Source of the DNA: an uncultured Alphaproteobacteria bacterium
GTDB taxonomy: Bacteria; Pseudomonadota; Alphaproteobacteria; HIMB59
DNA length: 64,000 nt
Assembly: GCA_902613185.1 (NCBI GenBank)
Contig: CACMGP010000002.1
Span: 99,378 to 163,377, forward strand
Direction: 5' to 3'
Part shown: piece by piece, positions 5,198 through 29,025 of the stretch
Numbering within the stretch: the first letter of the stretch is position 1
Layout: each line of letters opens with the position of its first letter
Notes under the pieces: generated by a model
Told to the model about the DNA's origin: nothing
The model's database searches: none
What the model saw: the letters and a program-made list of their open reading frames with translations, nothing else
Translations under genes and position numbers: made by a program

Positions 5198-7536
5198 TAG
5201 TTTTTTAGTCTTCTCCCCGTAGACAGCATTGCATGGATCCTATCCCTCGTCTTATTGGATTGTATTAAATTTATCAAAGACTGTCGCTCTAAATCATATA
5301 GATCGGCTTCTGACAATTCTTTTGATTTAGTTGTATCACCCCCGCTAAGTACGGTTGCTAAATGAAGACCAATATCAACATCGTAGCCAAAAATGATCTT
5401 TTTTTGCTCTAAATCCAATAAAACTTGGTGCATTTTCTCTTTTACCTCAGGTCCGCTTAGTGTGAACTTTGGCTTTTCAGGAGCCGAATATCCATTCTTT
5501 AATAATGATACTTGATTAAAGGCCTCCACAAGAAGATTATCTCTGTTCAAAACGAAAATATCATCATCTAGAAAAAATTTATGCTTTTTAGCTTGCAATG
5601 GGGAATGGGCCATTAGGCCATATCCTATAATATCAAATACTTGAAGAGCTGCTTGATCATGGTCATTTACATATTTTTTGTCTTGCACCCATCTCCATAA
5701 TAATTCTTTACACCCACCACCACCTGGAACAAGGCCGACACCTGTTTCTACTAAACCTAAAGTGCTATTCATATGTGCAACCATCTTAGAAGTTTGACAT
5801 GCTACTTCAAAACCACCTCCAATAGCTAAACCTGCAACAGCACTAACTGTTGGTTTCGATGCATATTTCATTTTCATACACGCGGATTGAAAATCAGATA
5901 GGTATTTATCGATACCTTTCCAGTCTTTCACGTCAGCTAAACCAATCATGGTATTTAAATCAGCACCTGCAGAAAAATTCATAGCCTCATTATAAACAAC
6001 TAGACCTTGATAATTATCTTGTTCAAGACGGTTAACTGACTCCTCTAGAATTTTCATTGCATCAGCGTTTAAAGCATTTGCCTTGGTGTGAAATTCGCAA
6101 CACAGTATCTTTTGTTCTCGAGGTTCATCATTAAATTGCCAAATAGTTGCAGCAAAATTTCGAGATAATGGATTTGCATATTTTTTGTGGTCACCTAATC
6201 GGCGAACTCCCACTCCTCTAGAGATAAACTTCATACCTGTCTCATGATTATAAGCTCGTGAGGAAGCTGAGTCATAAGGCTCTTGTTTTAATCTAATCAT
6301 AGTTGTAAGTAATTCTGGTACTTCTTGTTTTTCATCTTGAAGTCGTTGGACAAATTTGGTGAGTCCGTACTCATTTAATAATTCAAATGGCCCTTCATTC
6401 CAGTTAAATCCCATACGAAGTGCATCATCTATATCTGTTACTTTTGATGAAACTTCAGGAATGCAAAAAGCGCTATAATTGATGATTTTAGCTAATACTG
6501 CAAAAGCATATCGACCATAATCACTATCATCATCAAGAAGTGCTTTGATACCCTCTTTCTCAACTCTTCTTGCGATTTCTAAATCTACTTTATCAAAATC
6601 GTAATAACTCATATCTGAAGTGTTCATCGCCTTGACATGTTCATCGCCCTCAACAATTGTTGTTTGATAAAAACCCCCAGGGCCCTTATTTCCATTAAAA
6701 CCTTTTTCAAGTAACTGCTCGACTAAAGGATGAGGTTTCACTACATCCATAAAAGGGTCATCTTCTTGTAATTCTTTTTTAAAGCTTGCAAGCACATCTT
6801 TCATCAAATCAATACCAATGAGATCATAGAGTCCAAAAACACCTGTTTTAGGAATTCCTAATGGTCGGCCAAATAAGGCATCTGCAATTTCTACTGGAAG
6901 ACCTCGCTCTAATGATTCATACATCGCAACCTGCATTGCGTACACACCAATACGATTACCGATAAAACCTGGAGTGTCGTTACAGTTAACAATACCTTTA
7001 CCCAGTTCGTTTTGACAAAAGTTGCGAAGGCTACTTATCTTGTCTTTATTCATCGTTGGTGTTTCAACGATCTCTAATAATCTCATAAATCGGACAGGAT
7101 TAAAAAAGTGAGTAATACAAAAATCTGCTTTCATACTATCAGACATCTCTTGTGTCAGAATTGAAAGAGGAATTGTAGAAGTATTAGATGAAATAATAGA
7201 ATTGGGGCTGCGAACTTTATCAATTTGGGAGTAAAGTTTGTGTTTGATATCAATACGCTCAACAACAGCTTCGATAACCCAATCTGCATCTTTGATTTCA
7301 TCAAAATCGTCATCGAGGTTACCTGGTTTGATATGATCAATTCTAGATCTTTCCACTAATAGAGGTGGATCTGACTTTTTGATAATATCAATTGCATTTT
7401 CAGAAATTTGGTTGGGTTTGTCTTTGCCTTTGAGATCAAGCAAAACCACTTGGCGGTTAGAATTAGCCAAATGGGCAGCAATACCTGAGCCCATCGTACC
7501 AGCACCAATTACAACGATTTTATTAAAGTTACTCAT
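5197..7536 (-). CDS. 3-hydroxyacyl-CoA dehydrogenase / enoyl-CoA hydratase fusion (FadN-like)
   Basis: A 779-residue bifunctional beta-oxidation enzyme. The N-terminal NAD-binding domain has the Rossmann motif VVIGAGTMGSGIAAHLA at residues 7-23, and the 3-hydroxyacyl-CoA dehydrogenase signature appears in SSNTSTIPLS, DFCITHFFNPVRFMRLLEIV and NDTPGFIGNRIG. The C-terminal third is crotonase-like: FSAGADLNTMIGL (oxyanion-hole region) and AVAGLAIGGGFEVACQTSKMVAH. The dehydrogenase-first order and length match FadN/YusL rather than FadB, where the hydratase comes first. It is the first gene of a two-gene operon with the acyl-CoA synthetase; no thiolase is in the window. Confidence 0.9.
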   Translation of the reverse strand: MSNFNKIVVIGAGTMGSGIAAHLANSNRQVVLLDLKGKDKPNQISENAIDIIKKSDPPLLVERSRIDHIKPGNLDDDFDEIKDADWVIEAVVERIDIKHKLYSQIDKVRSPNSIISSNTSTIPLSILTQEMSDSMKADFCITHFFNPVRFMRLLEIVETPTMNKDKISSLRNFCQNELGKGIVNCNDTPGFIGNRIGVYAMQVAMYESLERGLPVEIADALFGRPLGIPKTGVFGLYDLIGIDLMKDVLASFKKELQEDDPFMDVVKPHPLVEQLLEKGFNGNKGPGGFYQTTIVEGDEHVKAMNTSDMSYYDFDKVDLEIARRVEKEGIKALLDDDSDYGRYAFAVLAKIINYSAFCIPEVSSKVTDIDDALRMGFNWNEGPFELLNEYGLTKFVQRLQDEKQEVPELLTTMIRLKQEPYDSASSRAYNHETGMKFISRGVGVRRLGDHKKYANPLSRNFAATIWQFNDEPREQKILCCEFHTKANALNADAMKILEESVNRLEQDNYQGLVVYNEAMNFSAGADLNTMIGLADVKDWKGIDKYLSDFQSACMKMKYASKPTVSAVAGLAIGGGFEVACQTSKMVAHMNSTLGLVETGVGLVPGGGGCKELLWRWVQDKKYVNDHDQAALQVFDIIGYGLMAHSPLQAKKHKFFLDDDIFVLNRDNLLVEAFNQVSLLKNGYSAPEKPKFTLSGPEVKEKMHQVLLDLEQKKIIFGYDVDIGLHLATVLSGGDTTKSKELSEADLYDLERQSLINLIQSNKTRDRIHAMLSTGRRLKN

Positions 7537-7592
7537 AATAATAAGACAGGGATAATAGCAAAAACACTAAAAGAGCAAACAATAAACTTTAA

Positions 7593-9275
7593 TTAACTTG
7601 AAAAGGCCAGTGTTTTATTTAGTTCATTTATTTTACTTTCCAAACCAATAATAAATAACCTATTCTTAGCCCTTGAGAGACCAACATATAATTTTTCTAT
7701 TTCAATAGGAGATACAAAATTTGTAAAGAATAATATTGGCACTTCGAGACCCTTTATTCTATTTATTGTTTCAAACATTAATTGATCTGGTTGTACATAT
7801 TCAGCAGGACTTAATTCCAAATGACTAATATTAGGTATTATTTTGCTGAGGTTTTTAACATTTGTTGATTTTAAACCATCATATAATAATACTCCCATCT
7901 CTCTTACTTCAATACCCTCATGCTGTCTCAAATGATTAATTTTATCGGCAATCCATTTAAATTGTTGTTCATAATTTCGAACCGCAATCAACTCAGGTTT
8001 AGAGCCAATTACACCTCTCGAGGAGTATTTAGTCTGTTTGTTAAAACCTTTAAATAATTCGAAAATTTGTTTGGTATTCCTAAAATTCTCTTCTAATTCC
8101 AAATGACTGAATTTTTCTTTTAAAAAATATTGTGACTTTCTCTCAAAAATAGACTGTTGTTGATCATAGAAAACATAAAATTTGCCATTTTTTCTTAATA
8201 TTTGTTCGATACTAATCATCCACTCATCACTGAAGTCTTGTGCTTCATCTATAATTATTACATCATATTTTTTGTCATCATTCTTTAGCTCAGATACCAC
8301 AGTTTCAATTTCTTGATCTAAATCAAGTGAATTATCTTTTGGATGATCGAGGCCCCTTTTCATAGTGCTTACCCATTGATGTATGTTATGAATATATAAT
8401 TTTTCATTAAATCCTTTAAATGAGTATCGAATATAGCGAGCTAAAGGTTTATTAAAGCATAAAAATAAAATTTTATGTTTTGGTGCCATAGTTCTCATTA
8501 GTTCAATAGCTAATAATGTTTTCCCTGTGCCTGCCCCTCCGTTTAGAGCTACGTAATTTAGATTTGGAATTATATTAATGAAAAAGCTTTGATTACTTGA
8601 AAAAGACATTTCTTCATTTTCAATTTCAATTGATTTTTTAAGGGGAATTTTTACAGGTAAGTCATTTCCAATAATTAATTTATGAAAATTTTTTTGAAAT
8701 AATGCGTCTAGAGTATTAAATTCCCTATCTCCTTTGTGCCAATCTAAAATTTTATTTATATTTTCTCTAATATTGTTCAAATCATCTTTGAAAATAAATA
8801 AATTCTGTGGTTTATCAGGACCAAAGGGCCTGGGATCGAGTGGTCGAGGCGTGTCTGGAAGACAGGCAGCGTAAGACAAGTTCAAAAATTTTCCTTTGAG
8901 TTCAGGATAATCGTCATAAAGCAAATCTCTTATTGCAAACATTGCCTTTTTAGACTGACTTAAAGGATCTTTAATTTTATATTTCTTATTTTCATCTCTT
9001 CTCAATGAAATCCATTGTTTATCTCTAGCATTAAAACCAACTATGCCCCCTTTAACTTCTAAGAATAAAATACCTTTATTGGGAACCATAATAATAAAAT
9101 CGCACTCGCCATCGATCATATTGCCTTCGATAGAAGTTTTTAAAAAATTACATTGTGAATATATTTTTGATTCTTTACTTAATAGATCATGCATAAATAA
9201 AAAAACTTTTTTTTCTGATTGGAAGTTATTTTTATCTAATAATGATAGTATTGTAGGTGGAAAATATTCTGGCAT
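7593..9275 (-). CDS. NERD nuclease-domain / UvrD-like superfamily 1 helicase
   Basis: A 560-residue fusion. The N-terminal NERD domain shows a PD-(D/E)XK-type catalytic pattern: D59 in GECDFIIM and E73-x-K75 in LFLEVKGG. From about residue 240 it is an SF1 helicase: Walker A GGAGTGKTLLA, Walker B IIIDEAQDF, the LEENFRNT motif and the C-terminal VGLSRAKNRLFII motif VI. NERD helicases are repeatedly found beside restriction-modification and other defence genes. Here it is divergently transcribed from the cytosine methyltransferase, with 43 bases between starts. Processing foreign or damaged DNA is a family-based inference. It could be an independent defence gene rather than a subunit of the neighbouring system. 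Confidence 0.85.
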   Translation of the reverse strand: MPEYFPPTILSLLDKNNFQSEKKVFLFMHDLLSKESKIYSQCNFLKTSIEGNMIDGECDFIIMVPNKGILFLEVKGGIVGFNARDKQWISLRRDENKKYKIKDPLSQSKKAMFAIRDLLYDDYPELKGKFLNLSYAACLPDTPRPLDPRPFGPDKPQNLFIFKDDLNNIRENINKILDWHKGDREFNTLDALFQKNFHKLIIGNDLPVKIPLKKSIEIENEEMSFSSNQSFFINIIPNLNYVALNGGAGTGKTLLAIELMRTMAPKHKILFLCFNKPLARYIRYSFKGFNEKLYIHNIHQWVSTMKRGLDHPKDNSLDLDQEIETVVSELKNDDKKYDVIIIDEAQDFSDEWMISIEQILRKNGKFYVFYDQQQSIFERKSQYFLKEKFSHLELEENFRNTKQIFELFKGFNKQTKYSSRGVIGSKPELIAVRNYEQQFKWIADKINHLRQHEGIEVREMGVLLYDGLKSTNVKNLSKIIPNISHLELSPAEYVQPDQLMFETINRIKGLEVPILFFTNFVSPIEIEKLYVGLSRAKNRLFIIGLESKINELNKTLAFSS

Positions 9276-9318
9276 TGTTATTATAATAATAATAATTAAA
9301 ATCTTACTAAAGTATTTT
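9276..9318. promoter_or_regulatory. Divergent promoter region with TAA/ATA triplet repeat
   Basis: The 43-bp gap between the opposed starts of the NERD helicase and the methyltransferase contains an uninterrupted run of ATA/TAA triplets (about 9280-9296). The region is nearly pure A/T and must hold both promoters. No good ribosome-binding site precedes the methyltransferase ATG at 9319. Confidence 0.4.
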
Positions 9319-10701
9319 ATGAAATTTATTGATTTATTCGCAGGTTTGGGAGGGTTTCACACCGCATTAGGTCGTTTAGGTCACAAGTGTGTTTACGCAT
9401 GTGAAATTGATCCTGCACTTAACAAGATTTACGAAGATATATATGGTATTCAACCAGACTTTGATATTTCAAAGGCAGATTTAAAGAAAATACCCGAATA
9501 CGACATCTTATGCGCTGGTTTTCCGTGTCAACCTTTTTCAAAAGCGGGTTCTCAGTCTGGGTTTAATCATAAAGTTGCTGGGGATATGTTTGATAAGCTT
9601 TGTAGTTTTCTAGAGGCTCACCGGCCAAAGTTTTTTTTTTTAGAAAATGTTCCAAATCTGCTAACTCATGATAAGGGATTCACTTGGTTATATATGAAAT
9701 CTAAGCTTGAGGGTTTAGGTTATAGTATTAGTCAAGATTTAATTTCTCCTACCGATTTTAATGTTCCTCAAACAAGACAAAGAGTATATATACTTGGATC
9801 CACTGACGATGATCCGATAAGATGGCCAGTCCCAGAAATTAAAAATAAAATCTCAGCCAAAGACTTTATTGTTGAAAAACCATCAAAAATAAAAAGATTA
9901 AGCAAAGATAAAAGAATAGTCTTAAAAATTTGGGAAGATTTTTTAAGTCAAATAAATAATAAAAACTCAATTATTAGCCCTTTATGGTCTATGGAATTTG
10001 GGGCAACATATCCTTATGAAGAAACTACTCCTTTTGCAATTGGTCAAAAGAAATTAAAAAAATATAAAGGAAGTTTTGGCGTAAATTTATCAGAAGTAGA
10101 AGATGACAAAATTTTTAAAAATATACCTCCCTATGCTCATTACAGTAATAGAAAAAATGAAAGTGATGAAAAAAAACTTAAGTTTCCTGATTGGAAAATT
10201 CAGTTCATAAGAAAATCTCGGGATTTTTATAAAAGAAATAAGAACTGGATTGATCCATGGATAAAAAGAAGTTTAAAACACGAGCAATTCAAAATAGCAA
10301 CTTATCAGAAATTCGAGTGGAACTGTCACGGTGATGAACTTAGGCTCAAAGATAAGTTTATAAGTTTCCGGTCATCTGGTGTCAGGGTAAAGAGGATTGA
10401 TAATTCTCCAACACTTGTAAATTTAAGTTCATCTGGACTACCTTATATAACATCAGAAAAAAGGTATTTTACTCTGGAAGAATGCTTGAAATTACAAGGT
10501 TTCCATGAAAAAAAATTCAAAATATTGCTCGATGAAAGTTATATAAACAAGTTAAATAGAGAGTCTGATGCATTTCTTTTCAGAGCCCTCGGAAATGCAG
10601 TGAATGTCGATGTCATTGAAAAAATAGCCGAAACATTTCTTTCAAAATCTAAAAACATTGTGTTTAGAAGCATCAAACAACAAATGAGTTTAATCTATTA
10701 A
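9319..10701 (+). CDS. DNA (cytosine-5-)-methyltransferase
   Basis: A C5-cytosine methyltransferase of 460 residues. The open frame extends upstream to 9043 through the antisense of the helicase gene, but the true start is the ATG at 9319, which gives the family N-terminus. Motif I is FIDLFAGLGGFH (residues 3-14), motif IV is GFPCQPFS with catalytic Cys70, motif VI is FFLENV, motif VIII is QTRQRVY, and motifs IX-X occur as CLKLQGF and RALGNAVNV. It should methylate a specific sequence with S-adenosylmethionine and protect host DNA from the nuclease encoded alongside. The target-recognition region (about residues 190-350) gives no hint of specificity by eye. It is convergent with the Z1 gene, one base apart. 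No Vsr endonuclease accompanies it. Confidence 0.92.
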   Translation: MKFIDLFAGLGGFHTALGRLGHKCVYACEIDPALNKIYEDIYGIQPDFDISKADLKKIPEYDILCAGFPCQPFSKAGSQSGFNHKVAGDMFDKLCSFLEAHRPKFFFLENVPNLLTHDKGFTWLYMKSKLEGLGYSISQDLISPTDFNVPQTRQRVYILGSTDDDPIRWPVPEIKNKISAKDFIVEKPSKIKRLSKDKRIVLKIWEDFLSQINNKNSIISPLWSMEFGATYPYEETTPFAIGQKKLKKYKGSFGVNLSEVEDDKIFKNIPPYAHYSNRKNESDEKKLKFPDWKIQFIRKSRDFYKRNKNWIDPWIKRSLKHEQFKIATYQKFEWNCHGDELRLKDKFISFRSSGVRVKRIDNSPTLVNLSSSGLPYITSEKRYFTLEECLKLQGFHEKKFKILLDESYINKLNRESDAFLFRALGNAVNVDVIEKIAETFLSKSKNIVFRSIKQQMSLIY

Positions 10702-10702
10702 G

Positions 10703-13234
10703 TTATATCTTCTGAATTCCAATCCAAGGAGATACTTCAGCAAACCAACTTGTTGGTGCATAAAAGAAAAAGTAACTGACATTTTTTTTTAATATTTTAT
10801 TTGGTTTGATATTTAAAGATTGTTCATAAACATCAAAGTTATGAATTTGTAAAGTTGGCTGATTTTTTGCATATAACTCATTAAGATTAAAATCATCTGG
10901 ATTTTCCAAATAATCAGTAAAATAAATTTTATCTTTTGACTCTATTGGACCTTTATCTGGATTACTTTCAATAACAATTTTAAATTCTTTGTTTCTACCT
11001 CTTCTTTTCTTTTCATCACTATTTTGATACTTATCATTCATTATCATAATTGGACAGGGTTCTTCTTCGAGTTTCATTTTCTCGATAATATTTGCTATAA
11101 AGTTAAACATATTTACATCTTCAGTAGAAAATCTCGACCTATCTAAAAATATATTTTTAACTTCTCCTAATTTTTTTTCGAAAAAAAAATGACCCCTTGA
11201 GTCAAAATTTTTGAATATATCTGTTAATTCTACTGCATCTTTTTTAATTTCATAATATAAGTCTCTATTTTTTTTTAGACCCTCATCAGAGATATTATGC
11301 ATAGATGTACCTTTTATATGACAAAATTGATTTCTTCGTCTTAACATGTCAAAACCAGTTCTAGCTGGATTAGTCAAATCATAAGATGCATTAGTTCCTC
11401 CCATAAACGTTCTTGGCCAATCAACTAAATCGTTTTTGGGATCTTTTAGATAATTAGTTATGTCATTTCTTAAAAAATACTCTGTTTTTGAGCCATCTGA
11501 AAATACGTTACTTGAAGTAATAGGCATGAAAATTCTGAATAAATCTAAGTTATTTTTGTGATAACCAAAAAATCTAGCTCTTTGTAAAGTGGTATCAAGT
11601 CTTTCACTGGCTCTTCTAAGAAGGTAAGATACAGTAAGTCCCTCCACAGTATAGCCCCTATCAAGTCCTGCGCCCCCTATAAGAATTCTTGCATACCCTT
11701 CTTCATACCATTTAATTACTGGAATAGTGGATTTTTCAAAAGCATTAAACTCAACTAATTCAATGAAAGAGATGGCTTTAACGAAATAAATAATATTATT
11801 TTTATCAAAATTTATTAAATTACTAGAAAATTTTTTTAAATCTTCGTATTGAGATAAAAATTCATCTAAGATTTTTTCGAAATCTTGTTCTTTTTGTGAA
11901 TGTCTAAATTTTAATAATTTATTTTTTAAAATTTGAAGGTCTTCGTTAACAAGTTCGATAATATTTTGGTGTGAAAGGAAATTATCACCATCAATGTTTT
12001 CAACTTCAGAGCAAATATGAATAAACATAGACCTGGATTTATTTTTTTTATGATGTTCTTTTTTTATTCCATCCGCAACTCCAATTATAAAACATCTTAA
12101 TGCTTTTTTTAAACTTTTTGGGTAATCATTGTGATTTTCAAGTTTTGAAAATTCAATTGGATTAATAGATCTTACATATTTACTCTTATTTTCAATATTA
12201 TCAAAAAAAAATTTACTTCCTGTATAACCAGAACCTGGATTTAATACTTTAGCAAAATTAGGTGATAAATTATTCCAAGTATCAATTAATAAATTTGCAT
12301 AAGGCGTTGCTGTATAACCAATATAGGAGGAGTTTCGAAAAAACTTTCTGAGAAATTTTATTCTTCTATGCGTAGCGCTTTCATTAGGAGCAACTTGATA
12401 AGTTTGATTAGACTCAAGATCATCTATTGATGATATTTGATCTTCATTTAACCAAACAAGTTCTTCTGCTGATATTGAATTCTCACATAAATAATCATCA
12501 ATAGTTTGATCCTCTTGAAACTTTGCAAATTGTGGTGGGTAACCTAAATCAACAAGACTAGCATCGTCATTTTTACTAGGACGACGCCTATTTAAAGAAG
12601 CATGGTCACATTCGTCATCTATAATTAAAGTCGGTATTGTGCTTAGTCTTTCATCTCTTTCATTGAGGGTTTTAATTAGCCTATGAAGCTTCTCTAGTCT
12701 TTTTACGCCTTTCATAGATAAAATAAATACAGTTCTTTTTTCTTCATCATTAAATATGTTATCTTCCCATGTATCAAAGGAGGAGCTAATATCAGATGAG
12801 ATATCTTCCATTCCTTTGCCTCTCCTTAGTTGTTCTTCGTCATTAGAACCTGGTATGTATATTCTCTTCCAACAAATTCCATTTGTGCTCTGATTGAGCC
12901 TTTGTTTAGTTTGTTTAGTTAACGAATTTACAGTTCCTGATAAAACTATAATTAGTTTGTATCCATTATCCCTTGCTAAATTACAAATCATTTCCATAGA
13001 AGAGGTTTTACCACTTTGAATTAAACCCATTGCTAGACCTGTAGAAAGAGAAGAATTAATTCTTTTTGGGTCAATGCATCTACTCAAAAGTTCCTTATTT
13101 TCTTTTAATCTTAGATTAAATTCCTCATGAATTTTTGACTTGTTCTCCTCACCCAATTTTTTCAAAAGATCATTAATGTATTGTTCCTTAAATTTTTTTA
13201 AACTAAAGCCCTGATCATTTACTTGCCAACTCAT
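10703..13234 (-). CDS. Z1-domain superfamily 2 helicase-like protein of a MORC/Z1 restriction system
   Basis: An 843-residue Z1-family protein. Walker A is AMGLIQSGKTSS (K76), Walker B is LIIDDECDHAS near residue 205, and YTATPYANLLID follows as the SF2 motif III-like segment. The Z1 domain proper (about residues 500-600) has ILIGGAGLDRGYTVEGLTVSYLLRR and TTLQRARFFGYH, matching the family's G-G-x-x-L-x-R-G-x-T-x-E-G-L and Q-x-x-R-x-F-G-Y. Z1 proteins are known with MutL/MORC ATPases, DCM methylases and PD-(D/E)XK proteins in the restriction-like systems described by Iyer, Abhiman and Aravind, and in Mza-type defence loci. It is the last gene of a four-gene minus-strand operon and abuts the ATPase gene with no gap. 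Confidence 0.88.
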   Translation of the reverse strand: MSWQVNDQGFSLKKFKEQYINDLLKKLGEENKSKIHEEFNLRLKENKELLSRCIDPKRINSSLSTGLAMGLIQSGKTSSMEMICNLARDNGYKLIIVLSGTVNSLTKQTKQRLNQSTNGICWKRIYIPGSNDEEQLRRGKGMEDISSDISSSFDTWEDNIFNDEEKRTVFILSMKGVKRLEKLHRLIKTLNERDERLSTIPTLIIDDECDHASLNRRRPSKNDDASLVDLGYPPQFAKFQEDQTIDDYLCENSISAEELVWLNEDQISSIDDLESNQTYQVAPNESATHRRIKFLRKFFRNSSYIGYTATPYANLLIDTWNNLSPNFAKVLNPGSGYTGSKFFFDNIENKSKYVRSINPIEFSKLENHNDYPKSLKKALRCFIIGVADGIKKEHHKKNKSRSMFIHICSEVENIDGDNFLSHQNIIELVNEDLQILKNKLLKFRHSQKEQDFEKILDEFLSQYEDLKKFSSNLINFDKNNIIYFVKAISFIELVEFNAFEKSTIPVIKWYEEGYARILIGGAGLDRGYTVEGLTVSYLLRRASERLDTTLQRARFFGYHKNNLDLFRIFMPITSSNVFSDGSKTEYFLRNDITNYLKDPKNDLVDWPRTFMGGTNASYDLTNPARTGFDMLRRRNQFCHIKGTSMHNISDEGLKKNRDLYYEIKKDAVELTDIFKNFDSRGHFFFEKKLGEVKNIFLDRSRFSTEDVNMFNFIANIIEKMKLEEEPCPIMIMNDKYQNSDEKKRRGRNKEFKIVIESNPDKGPIESKDKIYFTDYLENPDDFNLNELYAKNQPTLQIHNFDVYEQSLNIKPNKILKKNVSYFFFYAPTSWFAEVSPWIGIQKI

Positions 13235-14932
13235 TTAAGATAAGTTTCTTCTATTTTCTGAAGGTGGTAACTCCCTAAGTATACTGTTTAGATTATTAAG
13301 TATTGTCTCTGCCTTTGTTACACCCATATCTGATGCTGCGATAATCGTTGATGTGATTAAGAACTCAGCAAATATAACAATGCCATCACGAATTAATGAT
13401 TTCCCATCTTCATTTGTAGCAGCATTTAAAAAATATTGAGTAAAAAATACATGGGATAATGCTATCTGAATAGTAAGCGTTTTAGTTTTTTTATTTATCT
13501 GGTATTGAAGCCAAGAGTCAAAATAGTCTTCATCCCAAGTTGTCTTAACTACAACCTTATATCTAGTTCCACCTATAAGAATTGATTTATCTTTGTTGAT
13601 AGTGATGGCTCTTTTATGTCCCATTGAAACAGGATCCTCGGGTGATCTATTTAAATCTTTATATTTTTTTCCATTTTTAACTGCTTTTATTTGTTGACTG
13701 TAAGAAAAAGATCTTTTTTCATTTTGAGATATGATATCTGGGTGAATTCCTTTTGCTAAAAGTTTTTCCTTTTCAATTAATTTATCAACTTCTTTCTTTA
13801 TCTCTGTTCTAAGTTGCTCCCAAAGAGAGTTTCCATCAAATTTATTGGGATCTTGCATTTCTTTTTGTAGTTTTTCCTCGAAATCATGCAAATCATCATC
13901 ATTTAGAACTAACTCATCCTTCGTAAACGTGGAGTCAACGTTACTAAAATGTATTTCTCCATACAGACCTTTGTTTAGATGACTGCTATCCATTGATGAA
14001 ATTATAGACTCAGGAAATGTTGGTCCTTGCAAAAGTTTATTATATCTAAAATAGTATAGGCCCCTACCTTTAAAAGAAGTCTCTAACTTTGCAACATATC
14101 CTTTTGCCGTGAATTTATCTTCATTTTTTTCAACACCGAATTTTATATTTATTGGTAACTTCCAAAGAACAGGTTTTGGTTTATATTTTTTTGCTTTTTC
14201 ACTTTTGTAATTCCCATGATAATTGTCTAACCAACTCTTGTATGCAGTAATTGGGTAAGAATTTCTAAATACTGGCTTTTTAAAAGATAATTTATATGGT
14301 GGATTAGAGAAATCTTTAGATCCTTCAGCTTCATAGTAAATTTCAATATCATTACCTAAAAAATTTCGAAAAACTGACTCTAATGACTCTACAAACTCTT
14401 TATGTTTTCCAATAGGTTTTTCACAATTCTTTAGAGTAATCTTTGTAAATGACTTTGTATTTGGTTTGCTAAAATCTCTGTGAACAATAACCTTACCATC
14501 ATTTGAATTAGATATTTTGCCTAAATCAAGGTTTACAGTTTTTATTGCTTTTTCGTTTAATGCTTTTGTTTCAATACTCCATTGTCTTGTGAACCAATAA
14601 GATGCACATTTCATTCCCATACCAAACTCATTAAGGCTACCTTTTTTTGGTTTTACTGGTTTGGCTGCAGTTTTAAGTGCTCTTGACCAGTCTTTATCAG
14701 ATATACCTCCTGCATTATCCCTAATTGATATGACTCTTTTATTTTTACTTACAAATATATGAATTTTTAACTTATAATTTTTAGATAGTGCTTTTAACTG
14801 AGCTTTTTTATCGAAGTAACTTTGTACAGAGTTATCTATGTACTCTGCCAAAGCTGAATGAGTTTTATAACCAAGATAAGGTAAAGCCTCAAGAATACCG
14901 TGATCAGCACCTGCGTCTATCTTCTCAGTCAT
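13235..14932 (-). CDS. GHKL ATPase of the MutL/MORC type
   Basis: A 565-residue protein with an N-terminal HSP90/GHKL ATPase fold. The N box is ALAEYIDNSVQSYF (E30 likely the general base, N34 for Mg), followed by ISIRDNAGGI (the DNAGGI motif, residues about 70-80) and LNEFGMGMKCASYW (the G-x-G-x-K ATP lid, near residue 103). The middle corresponds to the transducer region with FKGRGLYYFRYNKLL. The C-terminal part is unassigned. Its partners match the MORC-like ATPase of MutL-type restriction systems, where ATP-driven dimerisation is thought to clamp DNA. It overlaps the upstream PD-(D/E)XK gene by eight bases and is followed directly by the Z1 gene, so all are co-translated. Confidence 0.88.
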   Translation of the reverse strand: MTEKIDAGADHGILEALPYLGYKTHSALAEYIDNSVQSYFDKKAQLKALSKNYKLKIHIFVSKNKRVISIRDNAGGISDKDWSRALKTAAKPVKPKKGSLNEFGMGMKCASYWFTRQWSIETKALNEKAIKTVNLDLGKISNSNDGKVIVHRDFSKPNTKSFTKITLKNCEKPIGKHKEFVESLESVFRNFLGNDIEIYYEAEGSKDFSNPPYKLSFKKPVFRNSYPITAYKSWLDNYHGNYKSEKAKKYKPKPVLWKLPINIKFGVEKNEDKFTAKGYVAKLETSFKGRGLYYFRYNKLLQGPTFPESIISSMDSSHLNKGLYGEIHFSNVDSTFTKDELVLNDDDLHDFEEKLQKEMQDPNKFDGNSLWEQLRTEIKKEVDKLIEKEKLLAKGIHPDIISQNEKRSFSYSQQIKAVKNGKKYKDLNRSPEDPVSMGHKRAITINKDKSILIGGTRYKVVVKTTWDEDYFDSWLQYQINKKTKTLTIQIALSHVFFTQYFLNAATNEDGKSLIRDGIVIFAEFLITSTIIAASDMGVTKAETILNNLNSILRELPPSENRRNLS

Positions 14933-16067
14933 GGTTTACTACTTTTCCATCATCTATCCAGATGTATCTTATACCAAGGTAATTTAAAAATTTAAAATAT
15001 AAATTTAGATTGTTCAATTTATCATACTTGATTGGGTTTTCATGAAAAATTAAATATTTTTTTATTACTCTGTCAAAACCCGAGGATCCGATTTGTTGAT
15101 GAAAAAATATATAAAAAGATAATTGAGTAATCGCAGACCTTATTTGAGAAATTATATTTTTACTAGTTATACTTTTTGCCTCATAAATATAACCATAATC
15201 ATCATTGTAAGCAAACATATCAAATGATTTAGGATCCTCATAAACTATTAGTTTTTTTTTTCTCAAATACTTATCTAAGATATTTAATGTTCTTTTGTGC
15301 AAGTAAGAGGCTCTATCTTTTAAATTTTGGATATCATACATATCTAAATTTTTAATTTTTAAATTAGAATTTGATATTTCTTTTTGAGGAATATATTTTC
15401 TAATATTTGGTAGTTTTGGGATCACTAATTGTTTAGATTTTTTAAAAATATTATTTAATTCGTTATTATGAAGGCTTGATATAACGTTTGTAATTTTTTT
15501 ATAATTTTTGTTGAGAAAAATATTTTCAAAATTCCTGTATTGAAAGATATCATTTTTAAATTTTATTTTAACTTTTTGATTATTTGTAAGAAAATAAGAT
15601 AAAAATTCAGATTTAAAATGAAATAATTTTGACATAGGAAAACTTTTTAAATTTTCATTGTCAACAAAATTAAAGCCATGATTTAAAATTTCATTTAAAT
15701 CGTAATAGATTTTTACCTCATCCTTACTATTTTCAGTTTGTAATTTTAACTTATTAATTGAATGATAATCATTCATTTTTTCAAGTGGTGAATAACTAAT
15801 AATATCTAACTTTTCATTAATCAAAAACAAAGCTGTTATATATTTTTTTGAGAAATTTATAAAATTTCTATTGTAATATAAAATTAAATTTAAATAGTCT
15901 TTGATTTTAATATTGTCATGATTGTTAACGTAGCAGCATAAAAAGAGAAAATTTTGATTTTTAAATTTTACTTTTATACTAATATTTTTATCAATTACTT
16001 TTAACTTACATTTTTTATCGTCTTTATTTAAAATATTTTCAAAATATTCAAGTTTTTTAGTATTCAT
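14925..16067 (-). CDS. PD-(D/E)XK nuclease-like protein of the MORC/Z1 system
   Basis: A 380-residue, extremely K/N/I-rich protein. The C-terminal third carries a plausible PD-(D/E)XK core: the acidic residue of SFDMFAYNDD (near residue 290), followed by YGYIYEAKSI with E-x-K, then an SQIRSAITQLSFYIFFHQQ helix. The R-x-x-x-x-Q-L-x-x-Y pattern after the E-x-K strand is typical of restriction-type PD-(D/E)XK domains. The first ~250 residues are unassigned and could recognise DNA. The operon position, between a small unknown gene and the MORC ATPase, matches the nuclease slot of such systems, and it is therefore the best candidate cleavage subunit. Base composition is clearly lower in G+C than the metabolic genes on either side. 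Confidence 0.7.
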   Translation of the reverse strand: MNTKKLEYFENILNKDDKKCKLKVIDKNISIKVKFKNQNFLFLCCYVNNHDNIKIKDYLNLILYYNRNFINFSKKYITALFLINEKLDIISYSPLEKMNDYHSINKLKLQTENSKDEVKIYYDLNEILNHGFNFVDNENLKSFPMSKLFHFKSEFLSYFLTNNQKVKIKFKNDIFQYRNFENIFLNKNYKKITNVISSLHNNELNNIFKKSKQLVIPKLPNIRKYIPQKEISNSNLKIKNLDMYDIQNLKDRASYLHKRTLNILDKYLRKKKLIVYEDPKSFDMFAYNDDYGYIYEAKSITSKNIISQIRSAITQLSFYIFFHQQIGSSGFDRVIKKYLIFHENPIKYDKLNNLNLYFKFLNYLGIRYIWIDDGKVVNHD

Positions 16068-16068
16068 G

Positions 16069-16482
16069 TTAATCTAAAAACTTCTTTATAATCTCTTTAT
16101 ATCTTTTATCTTCATGAATCTTAATCACCTCGTTGATAATTAATAGTTCTAAAGCTTCTTCAAGCGTTTCATTAGAGGGAGTCTTGTTAAAAGTTTTAAT
16201 AAAATATTTATCTTTTATTATTTCTTTTAAATTCTCTAATGGGCAGTACTCGCACCACATTTTATCTCTCATGATCTCAATATCTAATTGCGATCGAAAT
16301 ATACTCATTTCCCCAAATTTATCTAGAATAATATCTAATTCATCATCAGTGATATAAGTAAGGTTTTCTTTTTTATTTATGAATAATTTTTTAAGACCTT
16401 CATATTTACAGACTTCGTACAAATATCCTAATAAATGGTCATAATAATTGTCTTTCCATTCGCTATATTCAAATAATTTCAT
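16069..16482 (-). CDS. Small acidic protein heading the defence operon, function unknown
   Basis: A 137-residue protein encoded one base upstream of the PD-(D/E)XK gene, so it is almost certainly the first gene of the four-gene operon. It is mostly predicted helix, acidic, and has a CEYCPLENL segment with two cysteines that is too short for a zinc ribbon on its own. The C-terminal half (SNETLEEALELLIINEVIKIHEDKRYKEII) could be amphipathic. I recognise no family. Possible roles are a specificity or control subunit, or an inhibitor of the nuclease. An operator-like inverted repeat lies 54 bases upstream of its ATG. Confidence 0.7.
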   Translation of the reverse strand: MKLFEYSEWKDNYYDHLLGYLYEVCKYEGLKKLFINKKENLTYITDDELDIILDKFGEMSIFRSQLDIEIMRDKMWCEYCPLENLKEIIKDKYFIKTFNKTPSNETLEEALELLIINEVIKIHEDKRYKEIIKKFLD

Positions 16483-16535
16483 AAAAGGAATTTATGTTTA
16501 GAGTTCAATGTTAAACAAAATTTGGAGATAAATTG

Positions 16536-16565
16536 TAGTGAAAAAAAAAGCTCAACATTTCACTA
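16536..16565. promoter_or_regulatory. Operator-like inverted repeat, copy 1 (before the defence operon)
   Basis: Perfect 8-bp inverted repeat TAGTGAAA-N14-TTTCACTA. The same half-sites with the same 14-base spacing recur at 21851-21882 and 22461-22490. Here it lies 54 bases upstream of the first gene of the PD-(D/E)XK/MORC/Z1 operon, a typical place for repressor control. The binding protein is unknown; the regulator encoded at 22497 is the best candidate because another copy sits on its own start. Confidence 0.7.
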
Positions 16566-16653
16566 AATAATTATAATAAGAGAAGTATTTTAGAATTGTC
16601 TTTATGTTTATTGTTTAGCATTTTGACTCCTTTCTGTTTGTTAATGAGCCGGA

Positions 16654-16680
16654 TCAAGCACCCTTTAAAAGGGTGCTTGA
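16654..16680. terminator. Perfect hairpin at the end of the module A operon
   Basis: The bases form a perfect inverted repeat, TCAAGCACCCTTT on one arm and the complementary AAAGGGTGCTTGA on the other, with a one-base loop. It sits 8 bases beyond the stop of the last gene of the 21.8-16.7 kb minus-strand operon. No clean T-run follows on the minus strand, so it may be an mRNA 3' stabiliser or a weak terminator. On the plus strand it is followed by an A/T-rich stretch with a seven-T run. Confidence 0.6.
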
Positions 16681-16688
16681 TATTTCAA

Positions 16689-17351
16689 TTAAATTTTTTT
16701 AATTAGGTTTTTCTGAATAAATAATCTAAAAAAAATTAAGATTAATAAAAAAGATAAAATTTCTAAAACAATAGAAAAAAGTAAGTAAATTTGTTTATTA
16801 TTATTCGCATTATTAATTTCAATATTTAGATTATCAATTTCTCCTAAAGTGGCACCTGCTTCTTTTTGCAAAACTCTATAAAATTTCATAATTTCGTATA
16901 AATAATCTTCGAAAACGGAATAACTGTTTAAATTTTCAACTTCTAATTCTTCAACATTTTTTTTTAAATTCTCAAAATTTTTAATTGGATCTGGATCTAT
17001 GAACTCTTTTACATATTTATTTGAAATCACTATTTCCATAAAATTTGAAGTATAAAATTTCAAATTAAATAATAAATTATCACTATATAATCCAAAATTT
17101 ATTGACATTTGAATTGACTCTAAATACTCACTGTTTAAAGATGTAAGTGAGAAATAAGAGGATTGTATATTTTGAAATTTATTATTTAACTCTGGTATTC
17201 TTTCCTGCATGTTTCTAATATTCCCCTCTGCTTGAACAACATATTGTTGAATTGCCAAAGATCCAAATTGTAAAACACCAGCAATGATCAAAATTATGAA
17301 ACCTCTTTTGCTAATTTTACTAGACTTCTTCACTGCTTCTAATATCCACAA
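16689..17351 (-). CDS. Coiled-coil membrane protein, two terminal TM segments
   Basis: A 220-residue protein with a transmembrane segment near the N-terminus (GFIILIIAGVLQFGSLAI), a long helical, probably coiled-coil middle (about residues 40-185) and a second strong TM at the C-terminus (YLLFSIVLEILSFLLILIFF) followed by a basic tail. The start shown is a TTG; a GTG at 17333 is an alternative. It overlaps the preceding gene by about 32 bases and closely resembles it in architecture. The helical middle could lie in the periplasm or cytoplasm. Such TM-coil-TM pairs recall chemoreceptor-like or scaffold proteins, but no known domain is visible. It is the last gene of the channel/PrsW operon. 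Confidence 0.7.
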   Translation of the reverse strand: MWILEAVKKSSKISKRGFIILIIAGVLQFGSLAIQQYVVQAEGNIRNMQERIPELNNKFQNIQSSYFSLTSLNSEYLESIQMSINFGLYSDNLLFNLKFYTSNFMEIVISNKYVKEFIDPDPIKNFENLKKNVEELEVENLNSYSVFEDYLYEIMKFYRVLQKEAGATLGEIDNLNIEINNANNNKQIYLLFSIVLEILSFLLILIFFRLFIQKNLIKKI

Positions 17352-28848: not shown

Positions 28849-29025
28849 ATGAGTGTTTTAGTCTTTGTTTCTTTGATGTCATATCAAAGCGGTTTCATTC
28901 CTTTAGTGATAATAGTAGGAGTCTTATTGTATTTGTTTATAGTCTTATTTTTTTTCTTAAACTACAACCATCAAAGGTCGTCAACTCCATCAATAGCAGA
29001 AACCACCATTAACGACTCTATATAG
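28849..29025 (+). CDS. Small single-TM membrane protein
   Basis: 58 residues from the ATG at 28849, 10 bases after the previous gene; the frame is open further upstream but that part lies inside that gene. Two hydrophobic stretches (SVLVFVSLMSY and FIPLVIIVGVLLYLFIVLFFFL) give one or two TM segments, with a polar C-terminus. It overlaps the convergent zinc-ribbon gene at 28971 by 55 bases, so one of the two may be shorter or spurious. Confidence 0.4.
   Translation: MSVLVFVSLMSYQSGFIPLVIIVGVLLYLFIVLFFFLNYNHQRSSTPSIAETTINDSI

What the first reader, a model, noticed from the sequence alone, without database searches (positions are those of the whole stretch)
7593..16482. Dcm-MORC-Z1-PD-(D/E)XK restriction-like system without Vsr and with an unknown first gene
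The ATPase, Z1 and nuclease set matches MutL/MORC-type restriction systems known from Iyer and colleagues and Mza-like loci. Here the nuclease is a K/N-rich PD-(D/E)XK protein, Vsr is missing, a NERD helicase is divergent from the methylase, and a 137-residue protein leads the operon. This is a variant composition.
Basis: partly seen in the sequence, partly recalled or inferred. Interest (0 to 1): 0.55.

Follow-up and report, generated by a model that had tools for sequence, protein, structure and literature searches.

The report
DNA-defence system with a swapped cutter
A marine bacterium carries a known type of DNA-cutting defence system in which the usual DNA-cutting protein is missing and an apparently unrelated one sits in the same gene cluster, which suggests that the recognising and the cutting parts of such systems can be exchanged.

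Summary
NERD helicase, Dcm, Z1 helicase and MORC ATPase keep their catalytic motifs. The locus is a variant of the third MORC operon type of Iyer 2008. Its relatives nearly always use a DUF4420 nuclease: 79 of 92 comparison loci. The window has none. Instead P0005, which overlaps MORC by 8 bases, carries an unrelated C-terminal PD-(D/E)XK domain, shared with two Pelagibacteraceae MORC-Z1 loci that also lack DUF4420 and with two simple Dcm-nuclease pairs. Its first 240 residues are an orphan.
Lack of Vsr is ordinary: a Vsr ORF lies in 12 of 95 held stretches. The 137-residue gene is probably a neighbour: eight other genomes of the order carry it, none with P0005, six at the same hotspot upstream of fadJ beside other cargo. 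The exchanged cassette is about 7,564-16,068: P0005, MORC, Z1, Dcm, NERD.
The methylase target domain is kept across phyla while the nuclease varies, though in some Pelagibacteraceae the methylase changes too. Function is inferred, not tested.

The parts
7593..9275 (-). NERD nuclease-domain + UvrD-like helicase (560 aa), accessory nuclease/helicase
   Evidence: Pfam NERD, PADLOC RTasNERD-Hel 174.7 bits; homologue directly behind DUF4420 in G088 (E 3e-49); inside the exchanged cassette
9319..10701 (+). C5-cytosine DNA methyltransferase (460 aa), convergent with Z1 and divergent from NERD
   Evidence: Pfam DNA_methylase 222.1 bits; 52% identical to the Dcm of the same system in G088 and G103
10703..13234 (-). 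Superfamily II helicase with C-terminal Z1 domain (843 aa), predicted ATP-driven DNA motor
   Evidence: Pfam Z1 116.5 bits; DTTLQRARFFG at residue 547
13235..14932 (-). MORC-type GHKL ATPase (565 aa)
   Evidence: Pfam HATPase_c_3 62.6 bits; E 1e-45 to the G088 MORC; S5 motif with K in place of R
14925..16067 (-). P0005: predicted restriction nuclease (380 aa) that stands in for DUF4420; orphan part about 1-240, PD-(D/E)XK domain about 241-380
   Evidence: C-terminal match to the nuclease of DUF4420-less Pelagibacteraceae loci L053/L055 (BLASTP E 7e-8; z 14.4 against 1000 shuffles); overlaps the MORC start by 8 bases
14925..15347 (-). PD-(D/E)XK domain of P0005 (D283, E296-x-K298, QIR from 308, QL..Y)
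   Evidence: D, ExK, QIR and QL..Y columns invariant in 4 aligned sequences (A6; residue numbers); model order helix-strand-strand-helix-strand
16069..16482 (-). P0006 (137 aa): gene of the hotspot margin, NOT judged part of the system
   Evidence: full-length homologues in 8 other genomes of the order, none with P0005; dN/dS 0.06-0.13 in the 11 of 15 pairs that could be computed
7564..16068 (.). Exchanged cassette between P0006 and fadJ
   Evidence: within window 7400-16900 base-level homology with G017 and G154 covers only P0006 and fadJ with 27-28 bases before it; in G021 and G035 the P0006 match runs about 36 bases into P0005

Best explanation
This is an ATP-dependent, methylation-guarded restriction-modification system of the MORC-Z1 kind in which the usual nuclease, DUF4420, has been replaced by P0005. 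Proposed working: Dcm marks a fixed sequence in host DNA (family assignment shown, activity inferred). On unmarked foreign DNA the Z1 helicase assembles and runs along DNA using ATP, as is proposed for the Z1-bearing N-proteins of CglI and NgoAVII; the MORC ATPase closes on the DNA as a MutL-like clamp (both inferred from relatives). P0005 then cuts with its C-terminal PD-(D/E)XK domain; its N-terminal orphan part either docks on MORC/Z1 or reads DNA (inferred). The NERD helicase-nuclease would degrade or unwind the cut ends (inferred). P0006 is a neighbour, not a component.
For: Shown: core gene families and motifs. Z1 tree puts the locus in an 11-row group with G088 and Pelagibacteraceae loci, support 100. 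No DUF4420 hit in the six frames of the whole 64-kb window, while 79 of 92 comparison loci have one near MORC. The P0005 C-terminal domain is homologous to the nuclease in two other DUF4420-less loci and in two Dcm-nuclease pairs. P0005 overlaps MORC by 8 bases and lies in the exchanged cassette. P0005 has a lower GC (0.20) than MORC, Z1, Dcm and NERD (0.29-0.32), as a separately acquired gene might. Experimental parallel: CglI/NgoAVII Z1 ATPase plus nuclease cut DNA with unmethylated sites only with ATP (PMC4267653, passages).
Against: Full-length P0005 was found nowhere else (0 of 161 other genomes in the order; no match in plasmids; none confirmed in viral contigs), so its link to MORC-Z1 rests on one locus plus its C-terminal kin. 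In L053/L055 the kin sits between two Dcm genes of another family, behind Z1, not before MORC. Low GC is shared by the neighbours P0006 (0.25) and the 220-aa gene (0.23), so it is weak evidence. The whole-protein model was useless (pLDDT 32) and the domain model modest (pLDDT 62; best Z 5.6; no Foldseek hit at E<=0.001). The Z1 tree warns of long branches meeting at this very place and of skewed composition. The strict MORC S5 motif fails in the window (K for R); 90 of 94 proteins, window included, meet it. Restriction itself is not tested.
Confidence: 0.6

Rival explanations
1. P0005 is not the restriction nuclease; the NERD helicase-nuclease is the cutter, and P0005 is an accessory or a passenger gene (for example a separate small restriction enzyme).
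For: NERD carries its own ExK site and lies in the cassette. P0005 has a different base composition and no Pfam family. C-terminal kin of P0005 stand beside Dcm genes without MORC in two records.
Against: A strong NERD hit near MORC was seen only in this locus and in G088 (L016, its copy L046), which also has DUF4420; a weaker hit in L051 lies about 9 kb from MORC. L053 and L055 carry a P0005-type nuclease domain and no NERD hit. P0005 overlaps the MORC gene.
Confidence: 0.2
2. A decaying restriction system: DUF4420 was lost, and what remains is a methylase with leftover genes.
For: DUF4420 missing; MORC motif R to K; long branch of the Z1 protein.
Against: All five frames are open and full length with the motifs searched for; genes abut or overlap in a small genome (1.35 Mb assembled).
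Confidence: 0.1
3. P0006 is a regulator or leader component of this and other defence operons, so the system has six genes.
For: P0006 ends 1 base before P0005. It precedes a DISARM-like set in G017 and follows genes with partial PDC-M33 matches in G152; in G153 its neighbour looks like a methylase by eye.
Against: In G021, G035 and G154 it lies between a 274-aa and an 86-aa gene; in G028 it is inverted, with opposite genes downstream; in G113 no neighbour looks like defence by eye. None of these genomes has P0005.
Confidence: 0.13

Closest known systems
MORC operons of the third type, Iyer, Abhiman and Aravind 2008 (PMC2292703)
   Same: Helicase with the DThhQXuRhFG-type motif, MORC ATPase, Dcm methylase, an RE-fold protein
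   Different: In the relatives fetched here the RE-fold protein is nearly always DUF4420, absent in this window; P0005 and a NERD helicase instead; Dcm on the other strand (as in several Pelagibacteraceae loci)
Putative defence system of Miller et al. 2022 (PMC9523054): core Z1 protein + PD-(D/E)XK protein (printed DUF4220) + cytosine methylase
   Same: Z1 and cytosine methylase; MORC is named as an associate of its type II
   Different: The core nuclease is replaced; no AIPR domain in the six proteins scanned
CglI / NgoAVII (PMC4267653)
   Same: Separate methylase, Z1-bearing ATPase and nuclease
   Different: Their R-protein has PLD nuclease and B3 domains; three genes, no MORC
MzaABCDE
   Same: Distant MORC-like (MzaB) and Z1 (MzaC) proteins
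   Different: Scores far below the curated cut-offs; no MzaA, D or E hit among the six proteins
Pelagibacteraceae loci L053 and L055
   Same: MORC and Z1 convergent with a Dcm gene, no DUF4420 hit, nuclease with the same C-terminal domain
   Different: Dcm of another family, nuclease has an MTaX1 N-terminal domain and lies between two Dcm genes

Membership tests
MORC-Z1 restriction system (Iyer 2008, third type) | SF2 helicase with C-terminal domain holding DThhQXuRhFG | tested here: met
   DTTLQRARFFG at residue 547; looser form D-x3-Q-x-[AG]-R-h-[FY]-G in 79 of 88 Z1 proteins; Pfam Z1
MORC-Z1 restriction system (Iyer 2008, third type) | MORC ATPase with GHKL motifs and S5 motif GhXhhpXXRhl | tested here: inconclusive
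   GHKL boxes present, homology E 1e-45, but GLYYFRYNKLL has K for R; strict pattern met by 90 of 94 proteins, window included; L088 also has K
MORC-Z1 restriction system (Iyer 2008, third type) | An extra gene for an RE-fold protein with an acidic/ExK site | tested here: met
   C-terminal domain of P0005 by sequence; fold only weakly supported
MORC-Z1 system with DUF4420 (as in Miller 2022 core and most relatives here) | The nuclease is DUF4420 (PF14390) | tested here: not met
   no Pfam hit for P0005 at E<=1; no DUF4420 hit in the window at E<=0.1; C-terminal part z -0.2, N-terminal part z -1.2 against DUF4420 of G088; 79 of 92 other loci have it. PF14390 search of the own genome found none, but its control rang nowhere
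MORC-Z1 restriction system (Iyer 2008, third type) | Dcm methylase (frequent) | tested here: met
   52% to the Dcm of G088 and G103
PD-(D/E)XK nucleases (for P0005) | Acidic residue and ExK | tested here: met
   D, ExK, QIR, QL..Y invariant in 4 sequences
PD-(D/E)XK nucleases (for P0005) | Fold | tested here: inconclusive
   6 of the first 9 VIA rows are PD-(D/E)XK proteins by recall (2okf, 2inb, Card1, EndoMS, Bse634I twice), but Z is 5.6 at most and unrelated rows lie among them; no Foldseek hit at E<=0.001
MZA | MzaB and MzaC above NCBIfam cut-offs | tested here: not met
   38.7 of 850 and 124.9 of 1500 bits
CglI/NgoAVII type | R-protein with PLD nuclease and B3 domain | tested here: not met
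   No Pfam hit in P0005 at E<=1
DISARM | DrmA helicase and DrmB | tested here: not met
   No Drm model other than methylase DrmMII among the rows shown for the six proteins (lists of P0001 and P0002 cut at 25)
Any restriction system | Cleaves unmethylated DNA, methylates own DNA | not testable with these tools
   needs methylome and plating assays

The most novel reading that the evidence does not exclude
MORC-Z1-Dcm is a recognition-and-motor core with a fixed DNA target and exchangeable cutters. The Dcm target domain is conserved across phyla while the nuclease is DUF4420, HNH or P0005. That would put target recognition for restriction in the shared core (Z1/MORC, or Dcm itself) and make the nuclease a plug-in effector, unlike ordinary type II systems where the endonuclease reads the site. 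Against it: in L053/L055 nuclease and methylase have both changed, and in L037, L042 and L103 the methylase changed while DUF4420 stayed.
Probability: 0.27. Interest if true: 0.62.

Novelty: new variant of a known kind. Interest (0 to 1): 0.42.

Why it matters
MORC-Z1 restriction systems are widespread but the papers of which I saw parts do not establish their mechanism. A natural nuclease swap, with methylase and motor kept, gives a direct test of which part recognises DNA. It also shows that finding such systems by the DUF4420 gene will miss members. The same hotspot in this alphaproteobacterial genus holds different cassettes between the same two genes, so it is a good place to look for further systems.

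Tried and rejected
Rejected: SAR86 origin (my first guess from size and GC). A genome of the same order, G088, has a contig of the same length (30,052) and gene set as a record titled 'uncultured Alphaproteobacteria bacterium' (L046). That the complete genome G029 (1,410,127 bases) is HIMB59 is recall only; no tool named the window's taxon (only looked the name up). Rejected: Vsr loss as the novelty. Rejected: P0006 as a system component. Rejected: DUF4420 in disguise (z -0.2 and -1.2).

Led nowhere: P0005 in plasmids, in viral contigs, in 161 other genomes of the order; its C-terminal domain in viral contigs; the L053 nuclease in phages; MORC P0004 alone in viral contigs; the PDB by sequence; single-sequence fold of P0005. 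The weak PADLOC hit of P0005 to PDC-M02A (E 0.0033, 15.6 bits) was not followed. BpuJI_N in the Tolypothrix and G279 relatives is below cut-off (15 of 25 bits). Domain profile searches matched 2 of 385 genomes in the class sample (own and G279) and 2 of 398 in the phylum sample (own and G721, E 1.7e-6, context not read). The PF14390 search of the own genome found nothing, but its control rang nowhere. Folds not listed are not excluded.

Rows dropped. One search kept 80 of 357 relatives, so all counts describe the nearest ones. Nuclease count: of 95 stretches the window, L046 (copy of L016) and L030 (near copy of L029) were left out, hence 92; of the 8 'other' loci, L069, L107 and L109 end near MORC/Z1 at contig ends, L047, L082 and L117 have broken or missing genes, L067 and L116 are unexplained. 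The Z1 tree holds 83 rows: short or missing Z1 genes fell out, and so did G103 (L017), because the script looked for Z1 on one side of MORC only. Methylase comparison: 81 rows beside the window; 8 more were dropped because my motif I pattern missed them (L035, L038, L053, L055, L088, L109, L111, L115; 4 of them have an ordinary MORC-type Dcm); 3 of the 81 (L037, L042, L103) have another Dcm family and are not in the 78; near copy L030 was kept. The first Z1 motif pattern was too strict (8 of 88) and was loosened (79 of 88). Gene names not backed by a call (methylase look of G153 neighbours, defence-free look of G113) are by eye.

Full report
What is there. On the minus strand the order is P0006 (137 aa), P0005 (380 aa), MORC, Z1; Dcm lies convergent on the plus strand, with one base between the ends of Dcm and Z1; NERD is divergent from Dcm, 43 bases between their starts. 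Pfam supports NERD, DNA_methylase, Z1 and HATPase_c_3 above the curated cut-offs and gives nothing for P0005 or P0006 at E<=1. The motif strings searched for are present in the four recognised proteins. In the MORC S5 motif the arginine is a lysine; 90 of 94 MORC proteins, window included, meet the strict pattern.

What it is. Iyer and colleagues (2008; two of four parts of the text read) describe a third type of MORC operon: a helicase with a DThhQXuRhFG motif, MORC, an RE-fold protein, and frequently Dcm and Vsr. Miller and colleagues (2022; one section and passages read) predicted a defence system whose core is a Z1 protein, a PD-(D/E)XK protein (printed DUF4220) and a cytosine methylase. 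I fetched relatives by the MORC protein: the best 80 of 357 genome loci, 10 viral contigs, two plasmids and two genomes of the same order, G088 and G103. With local profiles the usual order is Dcm, MORC, Z1, DUF4420 on one strand; in several Pelagibacteraceae loci Dcm is convergent, as here. Of 92 loci (window and two copies left out) 79 have DUF4420 near MORC, 3 have an HNH gene, 2 have a P0005-type nuclease and 8 are cut, broken or unclear. The whole window has no DUF4420, Vsr or HNH hit at E<=0.1.

The nuclease swap. P0005 scores no better than shuffles against the DUF4420 protein of G088 (z -0.2 and -1.2), but its last 140 residues match the nuclease of about 515 aa in two Pelagibacteraceae loci, L053 and L055 (BLASTP E 7e-8; z 14.4 over 1000 shuffles). 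These loci also lack DUF4420. A Tolypothrix plasmid protein behind a Dcm gene (z 11.4) and a protein behind a Dcm gene in a genome of the same class, G279, share the domain. The columns D, ExK, QIR and QL..Y are invariant in four sequences. A three-sequence model of the domain has the helix-strand-strand-helix-strand order (pLDDT 62); six of the first nine structural matches are PD-(D/E)XK proteins by recall, but all are weak (Z 5.6 at most). The N-terminal parts differ: MTaX1 in L053/L055, a faint BpuJI_N trace below cut-off in the simple pairs, an orphan in P0005 that shows no relation to the L053 N-terminal part (z -1.1). So the domain looks like a cutter that is joined to varied N-terminal parts.

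Which genes belong. In the same genus the site upstream of fadJ holds different cargo. In G014, G019, G160 and G022 the matches at about 7,565 and 28,980-28,990 of the window lie 45-60 bases apart, so the stretch between is missing there. Within window 7,400-16,900, base-level homology with G017 and G154 is confined to P0006 and to fadJ with 27-28 bases before it; in G021 and G035 the P0006 match runs about 36 bases into P0005, and G035 and G152 have one further short match each. Between these two genes G017 has DrmA and DrmB, a methylase, a type II enzyme match and its own NERD helicase; G021 has a 1398-aa protein with partial Mko-type matches, and G154 one of the same length. P0006 has full-length homologues in 8 of 161 other genomes of the order, and weaker or partial matches in three more; six of the eight lie on the same contig upstream of fadJ. 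dN/dS is 0.06-0.13 in 11 of 15 pairs of six sequences; in four pairs with G028 dS is saturated. P0005 occurs in none of these genomes. I therefore take the system to be the five genes from P0005 to NERD and P0006 to be a neighbour. NERD is kept because it lies inside the exchanged segment and because G088 carries a homologue (E 3e-49) directly behind DUF4420. It is otherwise rare near MORC: hits in 4 of 95 stretches, window included, one of them a copy (L046) and one weak and distant (L051).

Methylase. Between motifs VIII and IX (boundaries set by me) the window Dcm has a 195-residue target domain. Over 78 MORC-type Dcm proteins from several phyla mean identity to the window is 0.50 in the catalytic part and 0.37 in this domain, with 29 columns conserved in at least 90%. 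The three loci with HNH are among them (target-domain identity 0.27-0.34). As a control, 313 plasmid records hold a Dcm relative at E<=1e-20, but only 4 align over at least 80% of the query, that is through this domain; three of these four lie in loci with a Z1 gene (Rathayibacter, Hymenobacter, Neorhizobium) and the fourth, Listeria marthii at 27%, has none annotated nearby. The control is not matched for catalytic identity, and shared ancestry alone keeps some similarity, so a common DNA target is an inference. Against a fixed target: in the Pelagibacteraceae loci L037, L042 and L103 another Dcm family stands in (target-domain identity 0.14 over 96 columns) with DUF4420 kept, and in L053 and L055 both methylase and nuclease differ.

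Mechanism. The nearest experiment is CglI/NgoAVII (passages read): there a Z1-bearing ATPase and a nuclease hydrolyse ATP on DNA with unmethylated sites, and cutting needs that hydrolysis; translocation is the authors' suggestion. By analogy the Z1 protein here would be the motor, MORC a looping or clamping ATPase (Iyer's proposal is looping), P0005 the cutter and NERD an end-processing helper. None of this is tested.

Novelty. None of the listings and passages I saw (searches; papers) describes a MORC-Z1 system with this nuclease; the library lacks preprints and most subscription journals. I rate it a new variant of a known kind. P0005 is a single case at full length, which limits confidence.

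Noticed in passing
window 7564-28978; L134-L145: The stretch upstream of fadJ is a variable hotspot in this genus; in G014, G019, G160 and G022 the matches to its two flanks lie only 45-60 bases apart.
   Followed up: partly
L139:8196-19754: DISARM-like cassette at the same site in G017: methylase, type II enzyme match, two proteins without a hit, NERD helicase, DrmA, DrmB.
   Followed up: partly
window 16069-16482; L139:7654-8067; L144:10257-10670; L161:6841-7254; L163:7978-8391: A 137-aa protein family of unknown function at the hotspot margin, strongly conserved and mostly next to changing cargo; function open.
   Followed up: partly
L167:6001-13075: Neorhizobium plasmid with Dcm (annotated as two genes), a DUF262 protein where MORC would be (no MORC hit), Z1 and PD-(D/E)XK: the ATPase may be exchangeable too.
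   Followed up: partly
L028:7308-9611, L029:7399-9999: Large proteins with RNA polymerase alpha C-terminal-like domains and sigma-70 region 4 matches shortly before MORC systems in Pelagibacteraceae.
   Followed up: no
L051:13784-14713, L065:13826-14698: HNH nuclease in the DUF4420 position behind Z1.
   Followed up: partly
L165:3074-9985: In G152 the P0006 homologue sits behind genes with partial PDC-M33A/C matches at the same hotspot.
   Followed up: no
L118:4770-7501: Tolypothrix plasmid Dcm followed by a 516-aa protein with the P0005-type nuclease domain: a probable restriction-modification pair.
   Followed up: partly
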